Below are positions 3,403-31,858 of a stretch of 34,421 bases of DNA, in pieces. A program made the position numbers and the translations under genes. The DNA comes from Planctomycetota bacterium. GTDB lineage: Bacteria > Planctomycetota > Planctomycetia > Gemmatales > Gemmataceae. The stretch is from contig JAPLNF010000294.1 of the NCBI GenBank assembly GCA_026692965.1, positions 1-34,421 on the forward strand, in the 5' to 3' direction. The notes beneath the pieces were generated by a model. That model had not been told where the DNA came from, made no database searches, and saw only the letters and a program-made list of their open reading frames with translations. Position 1 is the first letter of the stretch. Every line of letters begins with the position of its first letter.

Positions 3403-4256
3403 ATGAACATTCTTGAAAATTCTTACATAATTACCGGCCCTACTGCTTCTGGTAAAACCAACCTAGCAATCAAGTTGGCACAGCATTTAAATTCAGAAAT
3501 AATTTGCATGGATTCCATGACTCTTTATAAAGACATGGATATTGGCACAGCCAAACCCACCCAACACGAACAAGCTCTGGTTAAACACCATTTGGTAGAT
3601 ATTTTGCTGCCTACGGAACCAAGCAATGTGCAATTATGGCTGAAATGTGCTACAGAAATTGCTCAAGCATTGATCAGTAAGGGGAAATCGCCCATTTTTG
3701 TTGGTGGCACTCCCCTATATTTAAAAGCACTAATGATGGGTTTGTTTGAAATCCCAGAAATCCCCAAACACTTTCGTACGGAATTAGAGGCAAAATTCCC
3801 ACAAACTGATTTTGCAGACGCTCATCGAATTCTGTCAGAAATCGATTCTGATTCTGCAAAAAGAATTCACCCAAATGATCGACGCAGAATTATTCGGGCA
3901 CTGGAGGTTTGGCAGGGCCTAGGAAAAACAATCAGTTCTCTTCAAAAACAGTGGGAAATAAGCACCAATAGCCAATTCAACCCAGATAAAATCCGATGCA
4001 TTTGGCTACAAATGAATACCCAAATCTTAGCAAAGAAGCTTCCCAAGCAATTGGTTATTCCCAAATCTCCAAATTTTTAGATGGATCGCTAAGTTTCGAA
4101 AAAATGGAAGAAGCAATTAATCTAGCCACTAGGCAGCTTGCAAAAAAACAAGAGACTTGGTTTAGGCACCTTTCTGGTTGTATTCCTGTACCTTTAGAAA
4201 ATAACTTCCAATATTGGAATTTCGATATCGATATGCAACCAAATATTCTGGTATGA
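3403..4256 (+). pseudogene. miaA: tRNA dimethylallyltransferase MiaA, disrupted by an internal deletion with frameshift
   Basis: MiaA transfers dimethylallyl to adenosine-37 of tRNAs reading U-starting codons. Frame one (3403-4080) carries the P-loop G-P-T-A-S-G-K-T (12-19), D-S-M-T-L-Y-K-D-M-D-I-G-T-A-K-P (37-52), F-V-G-G-T-P-L-Y-L-K-A-L (99-110) and I-H-P-N-D-R-R-R-I-I-R-A-L-E-V. After I-W-L-Q-M-N (about residue 205) it leaves the family. A second frame (3996-4256) supplies the family C-terminus: L-S-K-E-A-S-Q-A-I-G-Y, then A-T-R-Q-L-A-K-K-Q-E-T-W-F-R. The usual linking segment of some 35 residues (R-x-x-L-x-x-R-I-x-x-R-V-x-x-M-x-x-x-G) is missing from both frames. The lesion is therefore a deletion of roughly 100 bases, not a multiple of three, near 4010-4025, and not just a base-call error. 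Either the gene is inactive or the assembly collapsed here. Confidence 0.85.
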
Positions 4257-5106: not shown

Positions 5107-5165
5107 TCAAAGTTATAAATTGAAATAGTCTCTTTTAATAATTGTTATCATGGGAGTGCCCAAGG

Positions 5166-6476
5166 ATGGCGGATAAATCTTTTGCTCATTTACATTGCCA
5201 TACCCATTACAGCTTGCTTGATGGTGCCAGTCGAATTCCCGAACTTGTCAATTATGTCAAACAACAGGGCATGAATTCTGTGGCGCTAACCGATCACGGG
5301 AATTTATACGGGGCGATCGAATTTTATAAAGAATGCAGGGCTGGCGGAGTAAACCCAATCGTTGGCTACGAAGCTTATGTCGCCCCAAAAGGAAGAACAG
5401 ATCGGGATGCAAAAAAGCGTGGAGATGCAGGATTCCATTTAACCCTTTTAGCTAAGAACAACAAAGGTTATCAGAACCTGATAAAAATGGCATCGATAGC
5501 GTTCCTTGAAGGTTATTACTATGTTCCGCGAATTGACAAAGAAATTTTAAAAGCCCACAGCGAAGGAATTATCTGCCTTAGCGGTTGTGCATCAAGCGAA
5601 TTTAGCGATTTTATTCTTCAAGAAAAACATGAAGAAGCTACAAACTTAGCTCGATGGTTTGCTAAAGTTTTTAAAGATAGATTCTTTGTAGAGATCCAGA
5701 ATAATGGAATCCCCATTCAGGAAGAATGCGCCCGTGGGGCGATCGACATTGCTAATAAACTTGGATTACCGTTGGTTGCTACCTCGGATGCACACTACTT
5801 AAGGCCTGAAGATAGTAATGCCCACGATGTTCTGCTTTGCATCAATACCGGAAGGCTTCGGACTGATGAAAACCGCATGAAGTATGGTTCCGACCAATTC
5901 TACATTCGTTCCCCCAAAGAAATGTACAAGCTTTTTCCAAACCAAGAAGAAGCAGTTAAACGAAGTCAAGAAATTGCTGACACTTGTGATATCCAGTTAG
6001 ATTTCAGCAAAAGACATTTCCCAGTTTTTTCACCACCAGATAAAAAGACACCCGAAAAATACTTAATCGAATTATGTAATGCGGGCATGAAGGAACGCTA
6101 TGGAGAAAACCCACCTGAAGCAGCCAAGGAAAGAATTGAAAAAGAAATTGGCATTATTTGCAGAATGGGATTCGCAAGTTACTTTTTGATCGTAGCGGAT
6201 TTCGTCAGATTTGCAACTGACAAGGGAATCCCAAGTAGCGCTAGAGGTTCGGCCTGTGGGGCACTTGTAAGTTATGTTCTCAAGCTGAGCCATGTAGACC
6301 CACTTGAATATGGCCTTTTGTTCGAGCGATTTCTTGATCCTAACCGAAGCGAAGCTCCTGATATCGACATCGATTTTTGCAAGGAAAGGCGCGAGGAAGT
6401 TATCGCTTATGTTCGAGAAAGAAAGTGTTGCGCAAATTGCAACATTTGGAACCATGGCTGCCCGAGCTGCAATTAA
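5166..6476 (+). CDS. dnaE: DNA polymerase III alpha subunit, N-terminal part of a frameshifted gene
   Basis: The start is the ATG at 5166, preceded by GGGAG and beginning M-A-D-K-S-F-A-H-L-H-C-H-T-H-Y-S, the PHP-domain opening of DnaE. A TTG eight codons earlier is in frame but lies before that Shine-Dalgarno. The PHP domain occupies about 8-275. The palm begins near 280, and the catalytic aspartates are in P-D-I-D-I-D-F-C (Asp401 and Asp403). True homology continues through R-R-E-E-V-I-A-Y-V-R-E to about 6419, and the last 19 codons (to 6476) are frameshifted nonsense. The family continues with K-Y-G-x-E-S-V-A-Q. About 11 bases that would encode K-Y-G-K are missing at the GAAA/GAAA junction near 6418-6423. 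As written the polypeptide lacks the third catalytic aspartate, fingers and OB fold, so it could not polymerise DNA. Confidence 0.92.
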   Translation: MADKSFAHLHCHTHYSLLDGASRIPELVNYVKQQGMNSVALTDHGNLYGAIEFYKECRAGGVNPIVGYEAYVAPKGRTDRDAKKRGDAGFHLTLLAKNNKGYQNLIKMASIAFLEGYYYVPRIDKEILKAHSEGIICLSGCASSEFSDFILQEKHEEATNLARWFAKVFKDRFFVEIQNNGIPIQEECARGAIDIANKLGLPLVATSDAHYLRPEDSNAHDVLLCINTGRLRTDENRMKYGSDQFYIRSPKEMYKLFPNQEEAVKRSQEIADTCDIQLDFSKRHFPVFSPPDKKTPEKYLIELCNAGMKERYGENPPEAAKERIEKEIGIICRMGFASYFLIVADFVRFATDKGIPSSARGSACGALVSYVLKLSHVDPLEYGLLFERFLDPNRSEAPDIDIDFCKERREEVIAYVRERKCCANCNIWNHGCPSCN

Positions 6477-8646
6477 AGATGTGGGCAGAGTTTTTAATAT
6501 CCCACTTGATCGCGTGACTAAACTTTGTGAATTAGTACCTGAAACCCCCGGGATAACCCTTCAAGAAGCAATCAATGGTAATTCAGAATTCAAACATGCC
6601 ATTAATGATGACCCGCAAATCAAAGAGCTCATAGATATCGCACTAAAGCTAGAAGGTACAAATCGAAATGCGGGTACACATGCTGCGGGCGTGGTTATTT
6701 CGAATGGTCCGTTAACCGATTATGTACCGCTCCAAAGAATTGTTCGAAAAGGTGATGAATCGCAACGAAAAGAAGAAGGCGTGATCACAACCCAATGGGT
6801 AATGGGAGACCTGGAAACCGTTGGCCTTTTAAAAATGGATTTTCTAGGGCTTCGAACTCTTACAGCACTCGATAACGCAGTTCGCATGATTAAAAAAAAT
6901 CATGATGTAAGTATAGATCTGAACAGCATTCCGTTGGATAACAAAGAAACATACGACTTATTGCAAAAGGGTGATGCAAAAGGTGTTTTCCAATTGGATT
7001 CAAGCGGTATACGCGAACTTCTTAAACGCATGAAACCCGATAATATCAGAGATATTATTGCGATTATGGCTTTATACCGCCCAGGCCCACTAGAAGGTGG
7101 CATGGTTGATTCCTACATCAACCGAAAACATGGCAGGGAAAAACCGGTATACGCACACGCTGTCATGGAACAAATTCTTTCCGAAACCTTTGGAGTCATG
7201 GTTTATCAAGAACAAATCATGCAGATTTTAAACCAATTGGGGGGCATCGAATTATCTAGCGCCTATGCTTGCATCAAAGCAATCAGCAAAAAGAAACACG
7301 ATATCATTGATAAAAGAAAGGAAGAATTCATCAGGGGGGCAAAAGAACGCGGCCTTGATGAGAAAACTTCTAGCGACATATTTCAATTGATCGTGGTATT
7401 CGGTGGCTATGGTTTTAACAAAAGCCATTCAGCGGCTTATGCACATATTGGCTTTCAAACTGCTTATTTAAAGCAACATTACCGCCCTGAATTTATGGCG
7501 GCCCTTCTTACCAGTGAAATAGAGGATGGGAATAAACGCGATAGCCTTGTAATGCATATTGATGATGCACGCCGCGGGGGAGTCGAAGTTTGCCCTCCAA
7601 ATATCAACTTAAGTGATTCTGATTTTGTTGTAGAAGATGGAAAAATTCTTTTTGGATTAAGGGCAATCAAAGGTTGTGGGGGTAATGCTGCGGCAGAGAT
7701 TGTGCGTAATCGCACGGAACTTGGCAAATACCGAGATATTTTTGATTTTTGCGAACGGATTGATCTTAGGTTAGTAAGCAAAGGCGTGATAGAAAAACTA
7801 ATCAAAGCTGGTGCGCTAGATTGCCTTAGGGCACATAGGGCCCAATTAATGCATCTTTTGCCCAGAGCAATAAAAGGTGCGGTTGACAGGCAGCATGATA
7901 AAAAATCAGGGCAGGGCAACTTATTTGCCCAGGTAACTGAAACCCCAGCCGAGGAAGATAGCAGCAGCAAATCAGTTTTAATTCAAGTTCCAGAATGGAA
8001 CGAAACAGAAAAACTTAAGTTCGAAAAAGAAGTGTTAGACTTTTACTTCTCTAGCCATCCGCTAACGCAATTTGAAAAAGAAATTCGCAGGTTTTCCACA
8101 CATTCTTGTGAACAACTACGGGATTTACCTGCAGATCACGAAGTAACACTCGGAGGAATGATCACTCAAATCCGGTTCATGAACACCAAAAAGGCCAAGA
8201 ACGGAAACACAAGATATGTACGCTGCAGGATTGAAGATTTTAATGGTGGGGTTGATTGTGTGATGTGGCCTGATGATTACCTTCGATACAAAGACGAATA
8301 TCAGGAAGACCGAGTCTGTTTCTTTAAAGGCAAAGTAGAGCGAACAAGGGATGAACCTGGCCTTATTCTACAAAGAGTATTCAGCGTGGAACAAGCATCA
8401 AAAGAACTTGCAAAGGGGCTTTACTTGCAAGTTTCATTGGGTACAAACAAGCCCCATGAAATCAATCAAATTGCAGAAATATTAAAAACAAGCCCTGGAT
8501 CTTGCCCAGTCTTTCTTTCGGTTCGGGATTACGCAAAAAATCTTTGTGTGCTCAAATTAGGGCGGGCTTTTCAAGTCAATCCAAACCGCTTTCCAGTTGA
8601 GGAACTTGAAGAAATTTTAGGGCAGGGGAATGTCAAACTAAGTTAG
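6409..8646 (+). CDS. dnaE: DNA polymerase III alpha subunit, C-terminal part of a frameshifted gene
   Basis: This is the +1 frame continuation of dnaE. Family homology starts at K-E-S-V-A-Q-I-A-T-F-G-T (about 6418), and the ATG at 6409 is the nearest in-frame start. Recognisable in order are A-A-R-A-A-I-K-D-V-G-R, N-A-G-T-H-A-A-G-V-V-I-S, the third palm aspartate in G-L-L-K-M-D-F-L-G-L, Y-R-P-G-P-L-E-G-G-M (fingers), M-V-Y-Q-E-Q-I-M-Q, G-F-N-K-S-H-S-A-A-Y-A, a helix-hairpin-helix region, and a C-terminal OB fold (G-G-M-I-T-Q-I-R-F). The two parts joined would give about 1,160 residues, normal for replicative DnaE. The last 14 bases overlap the convergent ogt gene. Both halves are well conserved up to the junction, which argues for a recent lesion or a sequence error over long decay. 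Confidence 0.92.
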   Translation: MFEKESVAQIATFGTMAARAAIKDVGRVFNIPLDRVTKLCELVPETPGITLQEAINGNSEFKHAINDDPQIKELIDIALKLEGTNRNAGTHAAGVVISNGPLTDYVPLQRIVRKGDESQRKEEGVITTQWVMGDLETVGLLKMDFLGLRTLTALDNAVRMIKKNHDVSIDLNSIPLDNKETYDLLQKGDAKGVFQLDSSGIRELLKRMKPDNIRDIIAIMALYRPGPLEGGMVDSYINRKHGREKPVYAHAVMEQILSETFGVMVYQEQIMQILNQLGGIELSSAYACIKAISKKKHDIIDKRKEEFIRGAKERGLDEKTSSDIFQLIVVFGGYGFNKSHSAAYAHIGFQTAYLKQHYRPEFMAALLTSEIEDGNKRDSLVMHIDDARRGGVEVCPPNINLSDSDFVVEDGKILFGLRAIKGCGGNAAAEIVRNRTELGKYRDIFDFCERIDLRLVSKGVIEKLIKAGALDCLRAHRAQLMHLLPRAIKGAVDRQHDKKSGQGNLFAQVTETPAEEDSSSKSVLIQVPEWNETEKLKFEKEVLDFYFSSHPLTQFEKEIRRFSTHSCEQLRDLPADHEVTLGGMITQIRFMNTKKAKNGNTRYVRCRIEDFNGGVDCVMWPDDYLRYKDEYQEDRVCFFKGKVERTRDEPGLILQRVFSVEQASKELAKGLYLQVSLGTNKPHEINQIAEILKTSPGSCPVFLSVRDYAKNLCVLKLGRAFQVNPNRFPVEELEEILGQGNVKLS

Positions 8647-12213: not shown

Positions 12214-12967
12214 TTATTTCCCATTTGCCCAAATGGTTCTTCCGCCATCAACAGGTAATTCAATTCCGGTAATAAATTCGCTTTGGATCAAAAATAATAC
12301 AGCTCGTGAAATATCCTGTGGTGAACCTTCAGAACGAACGAGAGTAGCATTGATTGCTTCTTGTCGCTCTTCCAAGGGTAAATCGAGGGGTAGCATAACT
12401 GGCCCAGGAAGAATGCAATTAACCCGAACTTTGGGATTTCTACTCCCAAGCTCCACTGCCAAACTTCGCGTAAGCGTTGGAATCGCCCCTTTGGTGGCAA
12501 AGTAAGCACTATAGCCAAGATTAGGGCCTATCTTGAGCCCAATCACCAATATTAATAATATTGCCGCCTTCGGGTTGAGCGATCATCATAAGGCCCGCCA
12601 ACCTAGAAGGAAGAAAAGTAGCCAAAATATTTGCTTCAAAATGCCGAGATACATCCTTCGAAGAAATTTCGAGAAAGTCTTTTCGCTCCCAAATCGAAGC
12701 ACAATTCACCAAAGCGTCAAGGCGACCAAATAGCGCCTTTATATCATGAAACATTCTCTCAACATCAGATTCCTGCGCTAAATCAGCTTGAAAGATCGTA
12801 GCCTCAATCCCAGCCTTATTTAATAATTCTGCAGACTGTTTTGCTTCAAGAGCCGATGTTCTATAATGAATACATATATGATAACCAATTAACCCTAGAG
12901 CATGAGCTACATGCCATCCAACTCTTTGTTTTCCACTGCCTGTTATAAGGGCAACTTTCTGAGGCAT
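12214..12967 (-). pseudogene. Short-chain dehydrogenase/reductase, interrupted by a one-base frameshift
   Basis: The first frame (12967-12521) starts M-P-Q-K-V-A-L-I-T-G-S-G, a Rossmann nucleotide-binding opening of the T-G-S-G-x-x-R-V-G type, and ends at a stop just after I-N-I-G-D-W-A-Q-D-R-P. The second frame (to 12214) continues the same family at once with N-L-G-Y-S-A-Y-F-A-T-K-G-A, holding the catalytic Tyr and Lys (Y-F-A-T-K). It goes on through L-T-R-S-L-A-V-E-L-G and ends P-V-D-G-G-R-T-I-W. Joined, the product would be about 250 residues, normal for an SDR. One extra base near 12523 is enough to explain the break, so a sequencing or assembly error is plausible. If real, the first product lacks the catalytic pair. 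The R-V-G variant resembles pteridine-reductase-like SDRs, but the substrate is unknown. Confidence 0.85.
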
Positions 12968-25698: not shown

Positions 25699-27687
25699 TC
25701 AATAAGTATTCTGCTTGAAGGCATACCCAAGAGCACGGCAATACCGTGAAAGAGCCATCAATGGGAAATAGACTCGATAATAATGGTACTTAAGATAAAA
25801 AACCTTAGGAAACCCAGTGCCCGTAAAAAAGTATTCAGCCCAATCGCCTCCGGAATCTTGAGTATTTATGAGATAAGAAATACCATTTCGGACCGCTTCC
25901 GAATTTTCTTCACCAGCTGCAATTAGCCCTAAAATGGCCCATGCAGTTTGGGAAGGAGTAGCCTCGCCCTGACCAGCAAGCGATGGATCATTGTAAGTAG
26001 CACAAGTTTCACCCCAAGAACCATCTTGATGCTGACACCCCTTAAGCCACTGAACAGCTTTAATAATCATAGGGGCCTTCATATCAAACCCTACGGCTTT
26101 AAGACCGAGCAAAACTTGCCAAGTACCATAAATATAATTCACGCCCCAGCGACCAACCCAAGCGCCCCATGGTTCCTGAGAACACCGAATATACTCAATG
26201 GCTTTTTGGATGTGGATTTCATTTGAACGATAACCGAGTTCACCCAGCGCCTCTAAAACACGTGCGGAAATATCCGGACAAGTGGGGTCAAGCATCGCAT
26301 TGTGATCAGCAAATGGAACCTTGGTTAAAAATTCCTGATCGATATCTTTATCGAAGGCGCCCCAGCCTCCATCCCGATTTTGCATCAAGAAAATCCAACG
26401 AACCGATCTCTCGATAGCAGCAATACATTCTGGGCGATTGTGACTATTAGTTTTTACCATTGCAATGATGACCATTGCGGTGTCATCAATATCTGGATAA
26501 AACTGGTTGTTATATTCAAAGAACCAACCTGCAGGCTTCATATCAGGATGATTGGTTGAGCAATCAATTTTACCAGTAACCTCTTTTTTCAAAAGCCAGT
26601 CTACTGCTTTTCTTAAATTCAAATCATCTTGGGGTTGGCCAGCATCTGCGACAGCAATCGTAGCAAGTGCGGTATCCCAAACTGGAGAAACACAAGGTTG
26701 AAGTCGAATGGTACCTTTTTCCTCGATAACTAGGTCAAGCAATTGCTTTAGGGCCCATTGCATTTCGGGGGCAGATTCTTTAACACCCAAGCACTTAAGT
26801 GCAACCACGGTGTAAATCATGGGCGGAAAAATAGCCCCTACACCGTCGGAGTATTGGAAATGTTCACGCATCCAATGAGCCGCTTTGCTAACTGCATAAT
26901 TTCTTAGTAACGGTAATCGTGGAGCGATCTTTTTGATTGCAAAGTCTGCCAACAAAAAGAAATTACGCCAGGAGAAAACTTCTTTGGAAGGGGGAGAAGG
27001 CCATTTTGCCTGCCAAGGATCTTCTACAAAAAGTTCACGAATACCTTTATCTTGGGCCAATTTAATCGATGGTTTGATCGCAGAAAAAATGCTCAGGGGG
27101 ACAAGGATGGTTCTAGTCCAACTAGACATCGAATAAATGCTAATAGGAAACCATGAAGGTAAAAGCAATAGTTCAGGGGGAACTTCAGGGCAATTTTGAT
27201 AAGAGTATTCGCCCAAAAGCGCAAAATAAAACCGAGAAAAACTATTACAATTTTCAGCACCACCAGCTTGAAGTATTTTTTCCCGAGCAAGTTTCATCCA
27301 TGGCAATTGGGTAGATACACCAGTTAACTTCAAAGCGAAGTAAGCCTTGGTTGAAACACTAAGATCAAAAGGCCCGCCTGGAAAATTACTCCAACCACCA
27401 TCTGGATTAAGTTGCGATTGAATATAAGCCGAACACTTCTGACATATTTCATCGTTTTCTTTACCCAAAAATGCCATGAGTAAAACAAACTCAGATTCTA
27501 AAATAGTGTCGCCTTGTAATTCAGCAACCCAGTGCCCATCTTTTTGCTGATGTCGAGTCAAAAAATCGCGGCCATTACCAACCGCAGTAAATGCTTGGTC
27601 TAGCAAATTACCAACTTGGCCTGAAACAGGATTAAAAGTCGTGTGCTTTTTATTTATGAACGATACTGGCACAGGAATCCTTTCCAT
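25699..27687 (-). CDS. shc: Squalene-hopene cyclase
   Basis: The protein is 662 residues, normal for the family. The catalytic D-x-D-D motif is D-I-D-D-T-A at 399-404, the site that protonates squalene. QW repeats are visible across the chain, for example D-G-H-W (50-53), D-G-G-W (96-99), D-G-G-W-G-A-F and D-G-S-W-G-E. It cyclises squalene to hopene at the membrane and is membrane-associated through a hydrophobic plateau. No Shine-Dalgarno precedes the ATG, and with the candidate promoter at 27709-27737 the leader would be only about 15 bases. Its upstream neighbour is hpnA, and hpnH and hpnG follow, so this is the core of the hopanoid operon. Confidence 0.96.
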   Translation of the reverse strand: MERIPVPVSFINKKHTTFNPVSGQVGNLLDQAFTAVGNGRDFLTRHQQKDGHWVAELQGDTILESEFVLLMAFLGKENDEICQKCSAYIQSQLNPDGGWSNFPGGPFDLSVSTKAYFALKLTGVSTQLPWMKLAREKILQAGGAENCNSFSRFYFALLGEYSYQNCPEVPPELLLLPSWFPISIYSMSSWTRTILVPLSIFSAIKPSIKLAQDKGIRELFVEDPWQAKWPSPPSKEVFSWRNFFLLADFAIKKIAPRLPLLRNYAVSKAAHWMREHFQYSDGVGAIFPPMIYTVVALKCLGVKESAPEMQWALKQLLDLVIEEKGTIRLQPCVSPVWDTALATIAVADAGQPQDDLNLRKAVDWLLKKEVTGKIDCSTNHPDMKPAGWFFEYNNQFYPDIDDTAMVIIAMVKTNSHNRPECIAAIERSVRWIFLMQNRDGGWGAFDKDIDQEFLTKVPFADHNAMLDPTCPDISARVLEALGELGYRSNEIHIQKAIEYIRCSQEPWGAWVGRWGVNYIYGTWQVLLGLKAVGFDMKAPMIIKAVQWLKGCQHQDGSWGETCATYNDPSLAGQGEATPSQTAWAILGLIAAGEENSEAVRNGISYLINTQDSGGDWAEYFFTGTGFPKVFYLKYHYYRVYFPLMALSRYCRALGYAFKQNTY

Positions 27688-27708
27688 TGCTAAACAATTA
27701 ATTAAACT

Positions 27709-27737
27709 ATTAAAAACGATGGATGGCTATCTGGCAA
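27709..27737 (-). promoter_or_regulatory. Candidate sigma-70-type promoter for shc
   Basis: On the minus strand TTGCCA (27737-27732) and TTTAAT (27714-27709) are separated by exactly 17 bases. Each box matches five of six consensus positions. It lies between hpnA and shc, 22 bases before the shc ATG, implying a very short leader. This would let shc-hpnH-hpnG be transcribed apart from hpnA. Confidence 0.5.
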
Positions 27738-27783
27738 GCAACTTTAATAAACAATTTTGAAAAGTTGATTCTTTACCAACAAT

Positions 27784-28785
27784 CTAGATCAATCCAATAG
27801 AATTAAACCAAGCAACCGCTTCCTGCAGGGAATTTTCAACAGGACGGACTTTCCATCCAAAGTCTTTTAAGGCAACATTGCTTTTAAAGTGCATGATTCT
27901 TCGAGTTAATTGCACCCCGGTTAAGTTTGCTTGAGGGGCTTTTCCTGTAACAAAGTCGGCCCACAATTCTGAAAAAAAAGCAAATCCGAGAGCTAAAGGG
28001 TAAGGGATTTGAGTCTCTGGGCCAGGTAAGCCAACTATTTTGGATAATATTTGAAATACCTCCATAATGGTTTTGTTTTCCCCTGAAAGAATATACCGCC
28101 TTCCTGGTTCCCCTCTTTCACAAGCAAGAATGAAACCTTGGGCAATATCTCGAACATCCGCCAAATTCAAATCGCCTGCAATGTACTCTTTCCTTCCGGC
28201 TTTGCAAAAATCGAGGATCATTTTTGAAGGAGGACTAAGTCCATAATCTCCTGGGCCAATAGGAAGCGTAGGATTCACTACGATCACGGGTGCGCCCATT
28301 GAACCTAATCCTAACGCGAACAATTCTGCACGCATTTTCGACCTACAATAACTGCCAATCGCATCTTTCAATCCAACCTGCTGCGTTTCAGTGATTTCAT
28401 CTTTTTGATTTTTACGAGTGAGAATACTTTCGGTACTGGCATGAACAATTCTTTTTACACCTAAATCGAGTGCAACTTCGATTACATTTTTCGCACCCTG
28501 AAAATTGACCTGATGATAATGTGATCTGCTTTTCCGCCAAAGATTGGGATCTGCAGCAAGATGAAAAACTACGGAACAACCTGATATCGCATTCTTTAAA
28601 CTTTCTCTTTTCGTGATATCAGCCCAAACAATCTCAAGATCAATTTTAGGGAGATGATTAATATTTACGCCAGGTTTTTCAAGAACCCGGACTGCAAAGC
28701 CTCGCTGCAAAAGGGCAGAAACCAAATGACTTCCAATGAAGCCTGCACCACCAGTCACTAAAACTTTATCGCTTTTGTTTATCAT
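27784..28785 (-). CDS. hpnA: Hopanoid-associated NAD-dependent epimerase/dehydratase HpnA
   Basis: The protein is 333 residues, an extended-SDR enzyme. The NAD-binding glycine motif T-G-G-A-G-F-I-G-S is at 11-19, the Y-x3-K catalytic pair is Tyr146/Lys150 (S-Y-C-R-S-K), and V-F-H-L-A-A-D-P-N-L-W (73-83) is typical of HpnA. Such enzymes occur in hopanoid clusters and are presumed to act on the sugar-like side chain, but the reaction is not well proven. It lies 96 bases upstream of shc on the same strand. No Shine-Dalgarno is obvious at the ATG. Confidence 0.86.
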   Translation of the reverse strand: MINKSDKVLVTGGAGFIGSHLVSALLQRGFAVRVLEKPGVNINHLPKIDLEIVWADITKRESLKNAISGCSVVFHLAADPNLWRKSRSHYHQVNFQGAKNVIEVALDLGVKRIVHASTESILTRKNQKDEITETQQVGLKDAIGSYCRSKMRAELFALGLGSMGAPVIVVNPTLPIGPGDYGLSPPSKMILDFCKAGRKEYIAGDLNLADVRDIAQGFILACERGEPGRRYILSGENKTIMEVFQILSKIVGLPGPETQIPYPLALGFAFFSELWADFVTGKAPQANLTGVQLTRRIMHFKSNVALKDFGWKVRPVENSLQEAVAWFNSIGLI

Positions 28786-28827
28786 TGAATGGAAGTCATT
28801 GAGTCAAACCATTTACTTGACAGCAAC

Positions 28828-28856
28828 AAAAAAAAAGCTCAAACACTAGTTAGCCT
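28828..28856 (-). terminator. Possible Rho-independent terminator after fhcC
   Basis: On the minus strand, GCTAAC and GTT-TG-AGC can form an imperfect six-base-pair stem with a two-base bulge around TAGT, followed directly by nine Ts. The fhcC stop codon is inside the stem. The stem is weak, but the T tract is long. Confidence 0.35.
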
Positions 28857-29652
28857 TACAAAGGATTTCACCCCGACCAAGAGAAATTAAATCTCCGCAA
28901 TATCTAGACCAAGGAGAAATCGTATTCATTAACGGGAAGTTGAATTGCTTGAGTTTATTAAAATAAATCGTAAGGAAAGAAGGATCATAATTGCATGAGA
29001 AGCGGAAAGTGGGAAGCAATGCAGGCCTTTCAGAAAGAAAAACCAACGAGCCTCTTTTCATCTCAGCACCCGCCCTTATGCCAACAGATCCAGCAGTAAT
29101 AATGGTGCCTGCGATCATTCCCATCCCTACAAAGTCGCCAACATTTTTACCAATGGCAATAAGGCCCCGCCTCATGTGGGAACCAACCTCATTACCACAG
29201 CTTCCATGAATGATAAGATTTCCTCCTCGCATCCCAACCGATGCGCCCCTATAAGCAGCACCAATAAGATGTCCCGCATCGCCAAGGATTTCAATAGTTC
29301 CACCTTTCATTTCTGCGCCAACCCAATCCGTAGCAGACCCCCTAACCAGAATTGACCCGCCTAAAATGCCAGCCCCTAGATGCATTCCCACATTTCCAAG
29401 GACTTCAATTTTTCCACGCGTCATTCTGCTACCAATTAATTTAACATTGGAGCAATCATTTTCGATCAAAATAGAATCATCGTCCATCGTTCCAGTAATA
29501 GAAAAGAACTGGCCAAGTTCGCACTTTCGATTACCATCAAAGACTGGAAGCTTGGAAATGTCTGAATTAGATTTACCAAGAAAGAAATCGGGGGTAATAC
29601 ATTCCGCTTCAAGCGGAATCTTAGAACTAGACAGATAAGAAAGACGAATCAT
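28846..29652 (-). CDS. fhcC: Formylmethanofuran dehydrogenase-type subunit C (formyltransferase/hydrolase complex)
   Basis: The protein is 268 residues. The central part (about 75-215) is a run of glycine-rich beta-helix repeats of the form G-x-x-x-G-x-x-M-x-x-G-x-I-x-I-x-G-x-x-G, as in FwdC/FhcC and the C-terminal domain of glutamate synthase. In bacteria with tetrahydromethanopterin, FhcC is part of the Fhc complex, which releases formate from formyl-H4MPT. AAGG seven bases before the ATG supports the start. It follows ftr/fhcD after 39 bases, so the two form a transcription unit. fhcA and fhcB are absent from the window. Confidence 0.9.
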   Translation of the reverse strand: MIRLSYLSSSKIPLEAECITPDFFLGKSNSDISKLPVFDGNRKCELGQFFSITGTMDDDSILIENDCSNVKLIGSRMTRGKIEVLGNVGMHLGAGILGGSILVRGSATDWVGAEMKGGTIEILGDAGHLIGAAYRGASVGMRGGNLIIHGSCGNEVGSHMRRGLIAIGKNVGDFVGMGMIAGTIITAGSVGIRAGAEMKRGSLVFLSERPALLPTFRFSCNYDPSFLTIYFNKLKQFNFPLMNTISPWSRYCGDLISLGRGEILCKAN

Positions 29653-29691
29653 AAAAAAACCTTTGACAATAATCAGCTTAAAAACGAATAA

Positions 29692-30588
29692 CTAGCTTAT
29701 TAAGGAAGAAAGACGTATATGAACAGGCCCAAGCTTGCCTCCATAATTACCAGCACTGATGCACTCAACTCCCTCGCCACAAGCGGCATGAAGCGCATTT
29801 TTCATTGCAGCCTCAACAGCTTCTCTGGAAAACCCATCAATAACAATCTCATATACAGCAGATACATTTTGATCTAATTTGGAAGCAGCAATCGCTCGCA
29901 AGGTAGGGCAATAAGCTTCATTGGTACTGGCTTTAAGTTTTTTATATTTACTGCCTACTTTGCTTCCACTACGAACAACACCGCCGGGAAAAGGAAGAAG
30001 AACATCGGGAACTTTGCGCGCCGCAGCAACCCCTCTTGAGGCTGCCTGAAGTGCAAGGGTCTGAGTGGTAGCAAGAATAAGAATATTGCCACCAGCCACT
30101 CCTTTAACTGTGCCGAATTTATCTTCACAAACAAATTCGCCATCCATGACAGGAATACGCCAATATCTCTTGCCATCCAAAAGTTTACTGGTTTGATACC
30201 CATCCCCAAAAAAGCGCAACATGCCACCAATCTGAATAGCACGCAAAGGATCAATAGGCACACCATTATAACAAGCCGTGGTAGGGCAGGTTAAAATAGA
30301 TTGGCCAACCCTTGCGACAATCGCTTTTTGCAAAGCCTCTCTGGAAAAAGCAAAGAAGAGTAAAGAAAAGCCAGGCCGTCCATCAGGAGTTTCATCCGGA
30401 GAAAGTTCGCGCTCAATCCCTGCTTCAGTATCGCAACCAATAACGGAAGACGCATACCCTGTTGAAGTGGTAGCAGCGATGAAGGCCCATTCTCTGGAAA
30501 CCGCTGTGACAATAACGCGAGTACCAGTAATAGGAAAAGCTTCCGCAAAGGTGTCAATGATTTTGACACCTTGAAAAAAATTAAACAA
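29692..30588 (-). CDS. ftr: Formylmethanofuran--tetrahydromethanopterin formyltransferase
   Basis: I place the start at the TTG at 30588 (298 residues), because the family begins within a few residues of G-V-K-I-I-D-T-F-A-E-A-F, and GGGGA lies nine bases upstream. The open frame reaches a TTG at 30612, deeper inside the previous gene. Diagnostic segments are D-T-F-A-E-A-F, T-R-V-I-V-T-A, Y-A-S-S-V-I-G-C and E-A-G-I-E near the N-terminus. Later, P-T-T-A-C-Y-N-G and G-G-N-I-L-I-L-A-T-T appear. Ftr (FhcD in bacteria) moves the formyl group between H4MPT and the methanofuran-type carrier. It overlaps the oxidoreductase gene by eight bases and precedes fhcC. Confidence 0.9.
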   Translation of the reverse strand: MFNFFQGVKIIDTFAEAFPITGTRVIVTAVSREWAFIAATTSTGYASSVIGCDTEAGIERELSPDETPDGRPGFSLLFFAFSREALQKAIVARVGQSILTCPTTACYNGVPIDPLRAIQIGGMLRFFGDGYQTSKLLDGKRYWRIPVMDGEFVCEDKFGTVKGVAGGNILILATTQTLALQAASRGVAAARKVPDVLLPFPGGVVRSGSKVGSKYKKLKASTNEAYCPTLRAIAASKLDQNVSAVYEIVIDGFSREAVEAAMKNALHAACGEGVECISAGNYGGKLGPVHIRLSSLIS

Positions 30589-31858
30589 ACTTGGTAATCC
30601 CCGGCCTTGCAACTTCTGGCATGGGCATCATTCCCAATTCGTATTTTGCAGGTGTAAGATCTTCCTTTGAATTCCATGCCATATCCCATGTAATTAATTT
30701 ACCTGTATAAGTTGCCATCCTACCCATGATAGCCATCAAGGTGCTTTGGCACATCCATTCCCCATCATTAATGGGTTTGCCAGCCCTAATGCTAGCAAAA
30801 AGTTCGTTGTGTTCATTTTGATACATGTCGTCCTGTGGTCGCTTTTTCATAGTCCAAGGATTCTTGCCCTTGATCTGATGCTTCATAACATCGCAAGTTC
30901 CCTGTGTACCCATGAGATAATCATTTACCTCATTAAAACAACCATCTTGCTGACGAGTGTAACTAAAGGCTTTAGCACCATTTTTCCATTCATAAACAAC
31001 AGCATGGTGATCAAAGATATGGCCAAAATCAGTAGAGACCCGAACCTGCCTACCCCCAAGTCCCATCGCAGAAATCGGTGGCTCATCCTTCATAGCCCAC
31101 ATGCATTTATCAAGGCTATGAATATGCTGCTCGACAATATGATCACCACTCAACCAAGTAAAATAAAGCCAATTACGAAGCTGCCATTCCATGTCCGACC
31201 ATTCAGGTTCTCGTTTTCTATGCCATAAGCCACCAACAACATAATTGGTGTGCATTGCAACAATATCACCAATCTGCCCCTCGTGAATGCGTGTCATAGT
31301 TTCGCGTTTACCGAAGTGATATCTCCAGCAAAGACCAGAAACAACGGCCAGATTTTTGATTTTAGCTTGTTTGCAAGATTCCAAAACGGAACGCACCCCA
31401 GTGGAATCAACAGCAACAGGTTTTTCAGCAAAAACATGTTTACCTTTTTCAATCGCATATTTAATTTGCTGTGCACGAAAATGAGGAGGGGTGGTAAGCA
31501 AAACAACATCAACACCACTATCGATAACCTTTTTGTAAGCATCGAACCCAAGAAACTTTTTATCGCCTACATTAATCTTACCCGCAAGTTCTTTATCTTT
31601 ATTAAAACTATTCAAGCTTCCTTCAAGTCTATCCCCAAACATATCTCCCATTGCATGAAGAGAAACAGCTTTATCCGCACGCAAAGCTTGAGCAGCAGCA
31701 CCAGACCCGCGCCCTCCACACCCAACCAAGCCGATTTTTAAAACATCGCTCCCTTGTGCATAAACACCGCCAGAAACAATGGGTAAAGCAGATAGTGCAA
31801 CAGCGCCCGCCTTTAAAAAATCTCTTCGAGGGGCAACCGACCTTTTAGGAGTAGCCAT
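30581..31858 (-). CDS. Twin-arginine-exported Gfo/Idh/MocA family oxidoreductase
   Basis: The protein is 425 residues. The N-terminus is a Tat signal: R-R-D-F-L-K-A-G (11-18) and a hydrophobic A-V-A-L-S-A-L-P stretch, with likely cleavage near A-Q at about 34-35. The Rossmann domain then starts with I-G-L-V-G-C-G-G-R-G (42-51), and the family E-K-P motif is in F-A-E-K-P-V-A (about 143-149). The C-terminal half has the usual sugar-binding sheet with conserved His and Trp residues. Such enzymes oxidise or isomerise sugars or cyclitols with NAD(P), and are exported in planctomycetes with the cofactor already bound. AAGGAAG precedes the ATG. The overlap with ftr suggests co-translation. Confidence 0.9.
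   Translation of the reverse strand: MATPKRSVAPRRDFLKAGAVALSALPIVSGGVYAQGSDVLKIGLVGCGGRGSGAAAQALRADKAVSLHAMGDMFGDRLEGSLNSFNKDKELAGKINVGDKKFLGFDAYKKVIDSGVDVVLLTTPPHFRAQQIKYAIEKGKHVFAEKPVAVDSTGVRSVLESCKQAKIKNLAVVSGLCWRYHFGKRETMTRIHEGQIGDIVAMHTNYVVGGLWHRKREPEWSDMEWQLRNWLYFTWLSGDHIVEQHIHSLDKCMWAMKDEPPISAMGLGGRQVRVSTDFGHIFDHHAVVYEWKNGAKAFSYTRQQDGCFNEVNDYLMGTQGTCDVMKHQIKGKNPWTMKKRPQDDMYQNEHNELFASIRAGKPINDGEWMCQSTLMAIMGRMATYTGKLITWDMAWNSKEDLTPAKYELGMMPMPEVARPGITKFV

What the first reader, a model, noticed from the sequence alone, without database searches (positions are those of the whole stretch)
6400..6440. dnaE is split by an 11-base deletion in its catalytic core
Frame one reads D-I-D-I-D-F-C ... 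V-I-A-Y-V-R-E and frame two resumes at K-E-S-V-A-Q-I-A-T-F-G. DnaE proteins normally have K-Y-G and one more residue between them, so about 11 bases are lost between two GAAA runs (near 6418-6423). Everything on either side is well conserved. dnaE is normally essential, so error or a second intact dnaE must be considered before real loss. A +1 ribosomal shift would still drop the conserved K-Y-G.
Basis: partly seen in the sequence, partly recalled or inferred. Interest (0 to 1): 0.55.

Follow-up and report, generated by a model that had tools for sequence, protein, structure and literature searches.

The report
Probable assembly error in dnaE
The main DNA-copying gene of a planctomycete looks cut in two by eleven missing bases, but four close relatives have it whole and the same draft sequence has several similar breaks, so this is most likely a mistake in assembling the genome rather than a real loss.

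Summary
dnaE (about 5166-8646) is split by a +1 frame change at 6415-6424, and the window has 11 bases fewer there than all five congeners that could be compared. Four of those five (about 94% identical DNA) hold one intact 1,171-codon dnaE. The fifth is also split, but by a different event, a 40-base tandem duplication.

The best reading is a local error in a draft assembly. The window is the first part of a 68,356-base scaffold and ends exactly where a run of Ns begins. The scaffold carries three more gap-free frame breaks in conserved genes and a 74-base loss over the start of an fhcD-like gene. The same genes show no gap-free split in G001, G003, G005 or G006.

dnaE shows 53 synonymous against 3 amino-acid changes unique to this genome, so slow decay is excluded and any real loss must be very recent. 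The genome has one other C-family polymerase, also present beside intact dnaE in four siblings, and no PolC. Without reads, a rare real variant cannot be excluded. Interest is low.

The parts
5166..6420 (+). 5' piece of dnaE: PHP domain and first half of the palm (frame 3; the open frame runs to 6476)
   Evidence: PF02811 and PF07733 positions 1-123
6415..6424 (+). junction where the window has 11 bases fewer than five congeners; frame shifts by +1
6421..8646 (+). 3' piece of dnaE: second half of the palm, fingers, HhH, OB fold, C-terminal region (frame 1)
3403..4256 (+). miaA, also split: 91 bases fewer than in five congeners at 4014/4015
12214..12967 (-). short-chain reductase gene, also split: one base more than in the congeners near 12520
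30577..30578 (-). 74 bases fewer than in four congeners; removes the start of the fhcD-like gene 29692-30612

Best explanation
The split is a local assembly error in a draft metagenome-assembled scaffold. The organism, a planctomycete near Gemmataceae, most likely has an ordinary intact dnaE, and 11 bases were lost when short-read contigs were joined or a small gap was closed. Shown: the split, the intact copies in four siblings, the cluster of comparable breaks and N runs in the same scaffold, and strong purifying selection on both halves. Inferred: that the genome is a metagenome assembly, that reads would contradict the consensus here, and the step of the assembly that lost the bases.
For: Four same-genus genomes (G001, G003, G005, G006) hold one uninterrupted dnaE frame, 98-99% identical in protein. 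The window's scaffold C294 has N runs at 34422-34518 and 53821-53872, where G001 has 13 bases and an overlap of 14 bases respectively. At the second run the two own flanks are variant copies of the same stretch, which matches the error 'Ns inserted during scaffolding despite overlap' described in PMC7111523 (passages seen). Over this scaffold, of 60 genes examined in the own genome 4 are split without Ns, 55 whole, 1 at an edge. G001: 58 whole, 2 edge of 60. G003: 58 whole, 1 edge of 59. G005: 26 whole, 33 absent, 2 edge of 61. G006: 45 whole, 10 absent, 4 edge, 2 split of 61; both G006 splits sit on N runs. Fisher test of 4/59 against 0/142 (G001, G003, G005 pooled; shared genes, so not independent): p = 0.007. 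dnaE changes unique to this genome are 53 synonymous to 3 amino-acid changing. Elsewhere in the same assembly C32 and C158 share exactly 141 identical end bases and stayed unjoined, and C32 has 19 As in a row where G003 has a mixed stretch of the same length. The abstract of PMC11017572 reports that many bacterial pseudogenes come from assembly errors (abstract seen).
Against: No reads were available. In a second sample of the own genome (57,886 bases on C292, C309, C314), of 39 genes whole in G001, 33 are whole, 1 is broken at Ns, 3 absent, 2 at edges and none is split without Ns, so gap-free breaks are not shown to be genome-wide; the difference from C294 (4/59 against 0/34) is not significant, p = 0.29. 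The dnaE junction itself has no Ns and no homopolymer of 11 or more. Losses of 11, 91, 74 and 8 bases between good flanks are also what real small deletions look like. G002, the fifth congener, has more broken genes than the own genome (3 split, 1 partial, 9 whole, 47 absent, 1 edge of 61); I read its duplications as artefacts too, but that is not proved.
Confidence: 0.86

Rival explanations
1. The deletion is real but very recent or carried by part of the population: a damaged variant that the consensus happened to pick.
For: Flanks are clean and the junction has a 2-base overlap, compatible with a small real deletion. No reads exclude it.
Against: dnaE is expected to be essential; three further gap-free frame breaks in the same scaffold would have to be explained as well, while G001, G003, G005 and G006 show none without Ns in the genes they cover. 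With 53 synonymous and 3 amino-acid changes on the own branch and a 95% upper limit of 7.75 for a count of 3, a loss of constraint can cover only roughly the last 6% of that branch, assuming about 2.5 amino-acid changes per synonymous one without selection (assumed, not computed).
Confidence: 0.12
2. The two frames are joined by programmed +1 ribosomal frameshifting, or the gene works as two separately made pieces.
For: Both frames are conserved, and as open frames they overlap at 6304-6476.
Against: Four siblings use one frame. The shifted product would still lack residues that 104 of 105 related loci keep as xYG. No known shift signal was recognised by eye at the junction (recalled motifs, not searched).
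Confidence: 0.01
3. dnaE is truly decaying because the second C-family polymerase has taken over replication.
For: A second polymerase is encoded on C32 plus C158, 1,014 codons in G003.
Against: G001, G003, G005 and G006 carry that same second polymerase beside an intact dnaE, and dnaE in this genome shows no relaxed selection. PMC3919608 (passages seen) says that dnaE2 was nonessential in every genetic study it cites; that the second copy here is a DnaE2 was not settled.
Confidence: 0.01

Closest known systems
Local assembly errors in metagenome-assembled genomes (PMC7111523, passages seen)
   Same: Faults inside good genes, Ns placed between flanks that overlap, several in one draft scaffold.
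   Different: The decisive sign used there, absence of read support, could not be tested.
DnaE1-type DNA polymerase III alpha subunit (NCBIfam NF004226, TIGR00594)
   Same: All domains in order; 98-99% identical to intact sibling copies.
   Different: Split in two frames in this consensus, K-Y-G plus one residue missing.
Split dnaE of congener G002
   Same: Same gene broken in a draft genome of the same genus.
   Different: Different place and kind: a 40-base exact tandem duplication, with 68- and 77-base duplications in two other genes of that contig.

Membership tests
DnaE1 DNA polymerase III alpha subunit | PHP, palm, fingers, HhH and OB domains in order | tested here: met
   Pfam hits over the two pieces, identical order in intact sibling P0003
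DnaE1 DNA polymerase III alpha subunit | single uninterrupted reading frame | tested here: not met
   met in G001, G003, G005, G006
Local assembly error | no read supports the consensus at the site | not testable with these tools
   no reads available
Local assembly error | other assembly faults in the same scaffold | tested here: met
   two N runs, one between overlapping flanks, and three further gap-free frame breaks
Pseudogene by decay | relaxed selection, more than one lesion | tested here: not met
   53 synonymous to 3 amino-acid changes unique to this genome; one lesion only
Programmed +1 frameshift gene | shift site conserved in relatives | tested here: not met
   four siblings use one frame
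DnaE2/ImuC (for the second polymerase on C32 and C158) | match to the error-prone polymerase model over its cut-off | tested here: not met
   intact G003 copy scores 485.9 against cut-off 939 for NF004225, 509.2 against 1002 for NF004226; only the superfamily TIGR00594 is passed
DnaE2/ImuC (for the second polymerase on C32 and C158) | imuA and imuB genes in the same cassette | not tested
   no search made; only a few flanking frames were listed

The most novel reading that the evidence does not exclude
A wild planctomycete population carries a true recent 11-base loss in its only DnaE1 and survives with its second, divergent DnaE as the replicase.
Probability: 0.01. Interest if true: 0.8.

Novelty: not a real feature. 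Interest (0 to 1): 0.07.

Why it matters
If real it would be a bacterium without an intact main replicase. As an artefact it is a reminder that draft genomes can make essential genes look broken, and that a handful of sibling genomes goes far towards settling such cases without reads.

Tried and rejected
Second dnaE or PolC as replacement: rejected, because the same second polymerase is present beside an intact dnaE in four siblings and no PolC passes the cut-off in any of 7 congeneric genomes. Chimeric scaffold with the join in dnaE: identity to each of the four near siblings is about 93-95% on both sides of the 4014 break and one alignment runs on through 6420, so no change of partner was seen at the dnaE junction. 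Slippage between two GAAA repeats of the intact gene: the ends share only 2 bases. Excess of breaks throughout the own genome: not shown, the second sample had none without Ns. The first count of own-unique changes in four genes was inflated beside the junctions because BLAST ran past them; one search leaves out the codons around each junction, and there the other three broken genes look like their siblings (own synonymous:amino-acid changes 8:2, 11:4, 47:12). Papers: two searches; PMC7111523 and PMC3919608 were seen as passages, PMC11017572 as outline with abstract; no other paper was opened.

Full report
What is there. The window holds dnaE on the plus strand. A frame opening at 5142 (TTG; likely start ATG 5166) runs to 6476, and a second frame runs to 8646. 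The first piece carries the PHP domain and positions 1-123 of the palm model PF07733; the second carries positions 123-260, fingers, HhH and OB fold. The frames change by +1 at 6415-6424. A search of the six congeners held, with window 6300-6560, gave a full-length match in five, each 11 bases longer than the window's, and the alignment puts all 11 at one place with clean flanks. The sixth, G004, gave no match to dnaE.

The relatives. G001, G003, G005 and G006 have an open frame of 1,169 to 1,172 codons over the gene, and their four coding sequences are each 3,516 bases long. The residues lost here are kept widely: of 109 related loci tested, 105 gave a hit and all 105 cover the place; 87 have KYG, 104 xYG, none a gap. 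G002 is split too, but further downstream in the gene and by an exact 40-base tandem duplication; two other genes on that contig hold 68- and 77-base duplications with 0 and 4 mismatches between copies. The next named relatives are Gemmataceae and other Planctomycetia.

The scaffold. The window is bases 1-34421 of own contig C294, 68,356 bases. Runs of N fill 34422-34518 and 53821-53872. G001 has 13 bases in place of the first; at the second the matches of the two flanks overlap by 14 bases in G001, and the own flanks look like two variant copies of that stretch. Own-specific losses or gains against all covering siblings include minus 91 at 4014, minus 11 at 6420, plus 1 at 12520, minus 74 at 30577 and minus 8 near 37417 (the last against G001 and G003 only). 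Four of these split a gene without Ns: miaA, dnaE, a short-chain reductase and a 594-codon gene without a family match. The 74-base loss removes the start of a formyltransferase gene (fhcD), which the split test counts as whole because more than 95% of it remains. In the control over the same genes, G001, G003 and G005 have no split gene and G006 has two, both on N runs. A second sample of the own genome, 57,886 bases, has four N runs and one gene broken at Ns, but no gap-free split. The assembly also left C32 and C158 apart although they share 141 identical end bases, and C32 carries 19 As in a row where G003 has a mixed stretch of equal length.

Selection. Against the four siblings dN/dS of the own dnaE is 0.014 to 0.045 over both pieces, like sibling pairs at 0.009 to 0.059. 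Changes unique to the own genome are 16 synonymous to 1 before and 37 to 2 after the junction. The gene was under full constraint until practically now. If the loss is real it covers at most roughly the last 6% of the own branch; this uses the upper limit 7.75 for a count of 3 and an assumed neutral ratio of 2.5.

The other polymerase. The own genome has one more C-family polymerase, in two overlapping contig ends; the G003 copy is 1,014 codons. The G003 copy passes only the superfamily cut-off and neither the DnaE1 nor the error-prone model, so its class is open. No PolC passes the cut-off in any of 7 congeneric genomes, the own one included. PMC3919608 (passages) lists DnaE1 plus DnaE2 as a known combination in Planctomycetes.

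Judgement. An assembly error explains the split, the neighbouring breaks, the N runs and the intact selection together, and fits what is described for draft genomes (PMC7111523; PMC11017572). Reads are the missing test.

Noticed in passing
window 4014: miaA is split by a 91-base shortfall against five congeners, with no shared bases at the junction.
   Followed up: yes
window 30577-30578: 74 bases fewer than in four congeners; the start of the fhcD-like gene 29692-30612 is lost.
   Followed up: yes
window 12520: One extra base splits a short-chain reductase (pteridine reductase-like) gene, 12214-12967 minus.
   Followed up: yes
L040 (own C32) 2489-2507: Nineteen As in a row inside the second polymerase gene where G003 has a mixed stretch of the same length; looks technical.
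   Followed up: partly
L039 (G002 C127): Three genes of a congener, dnaE among them, are broken by 40-, 68- and 77-base tandem duplications.
   Followed up: partly
L071: GenBank record titled 'Candidatus Kuenenia stuttgartiensis' carries a dnaE 99% identical to that of this Gemmataceae-like genome; the title looks wrong.
   Followed up: no
window 25699-31858: Squalene-hopene cyclase and a hopanoid-associated epimerase-like gene lie next to formylmethanofuran-type C1 genes (fhcC, fhcD).
   Followed up: no
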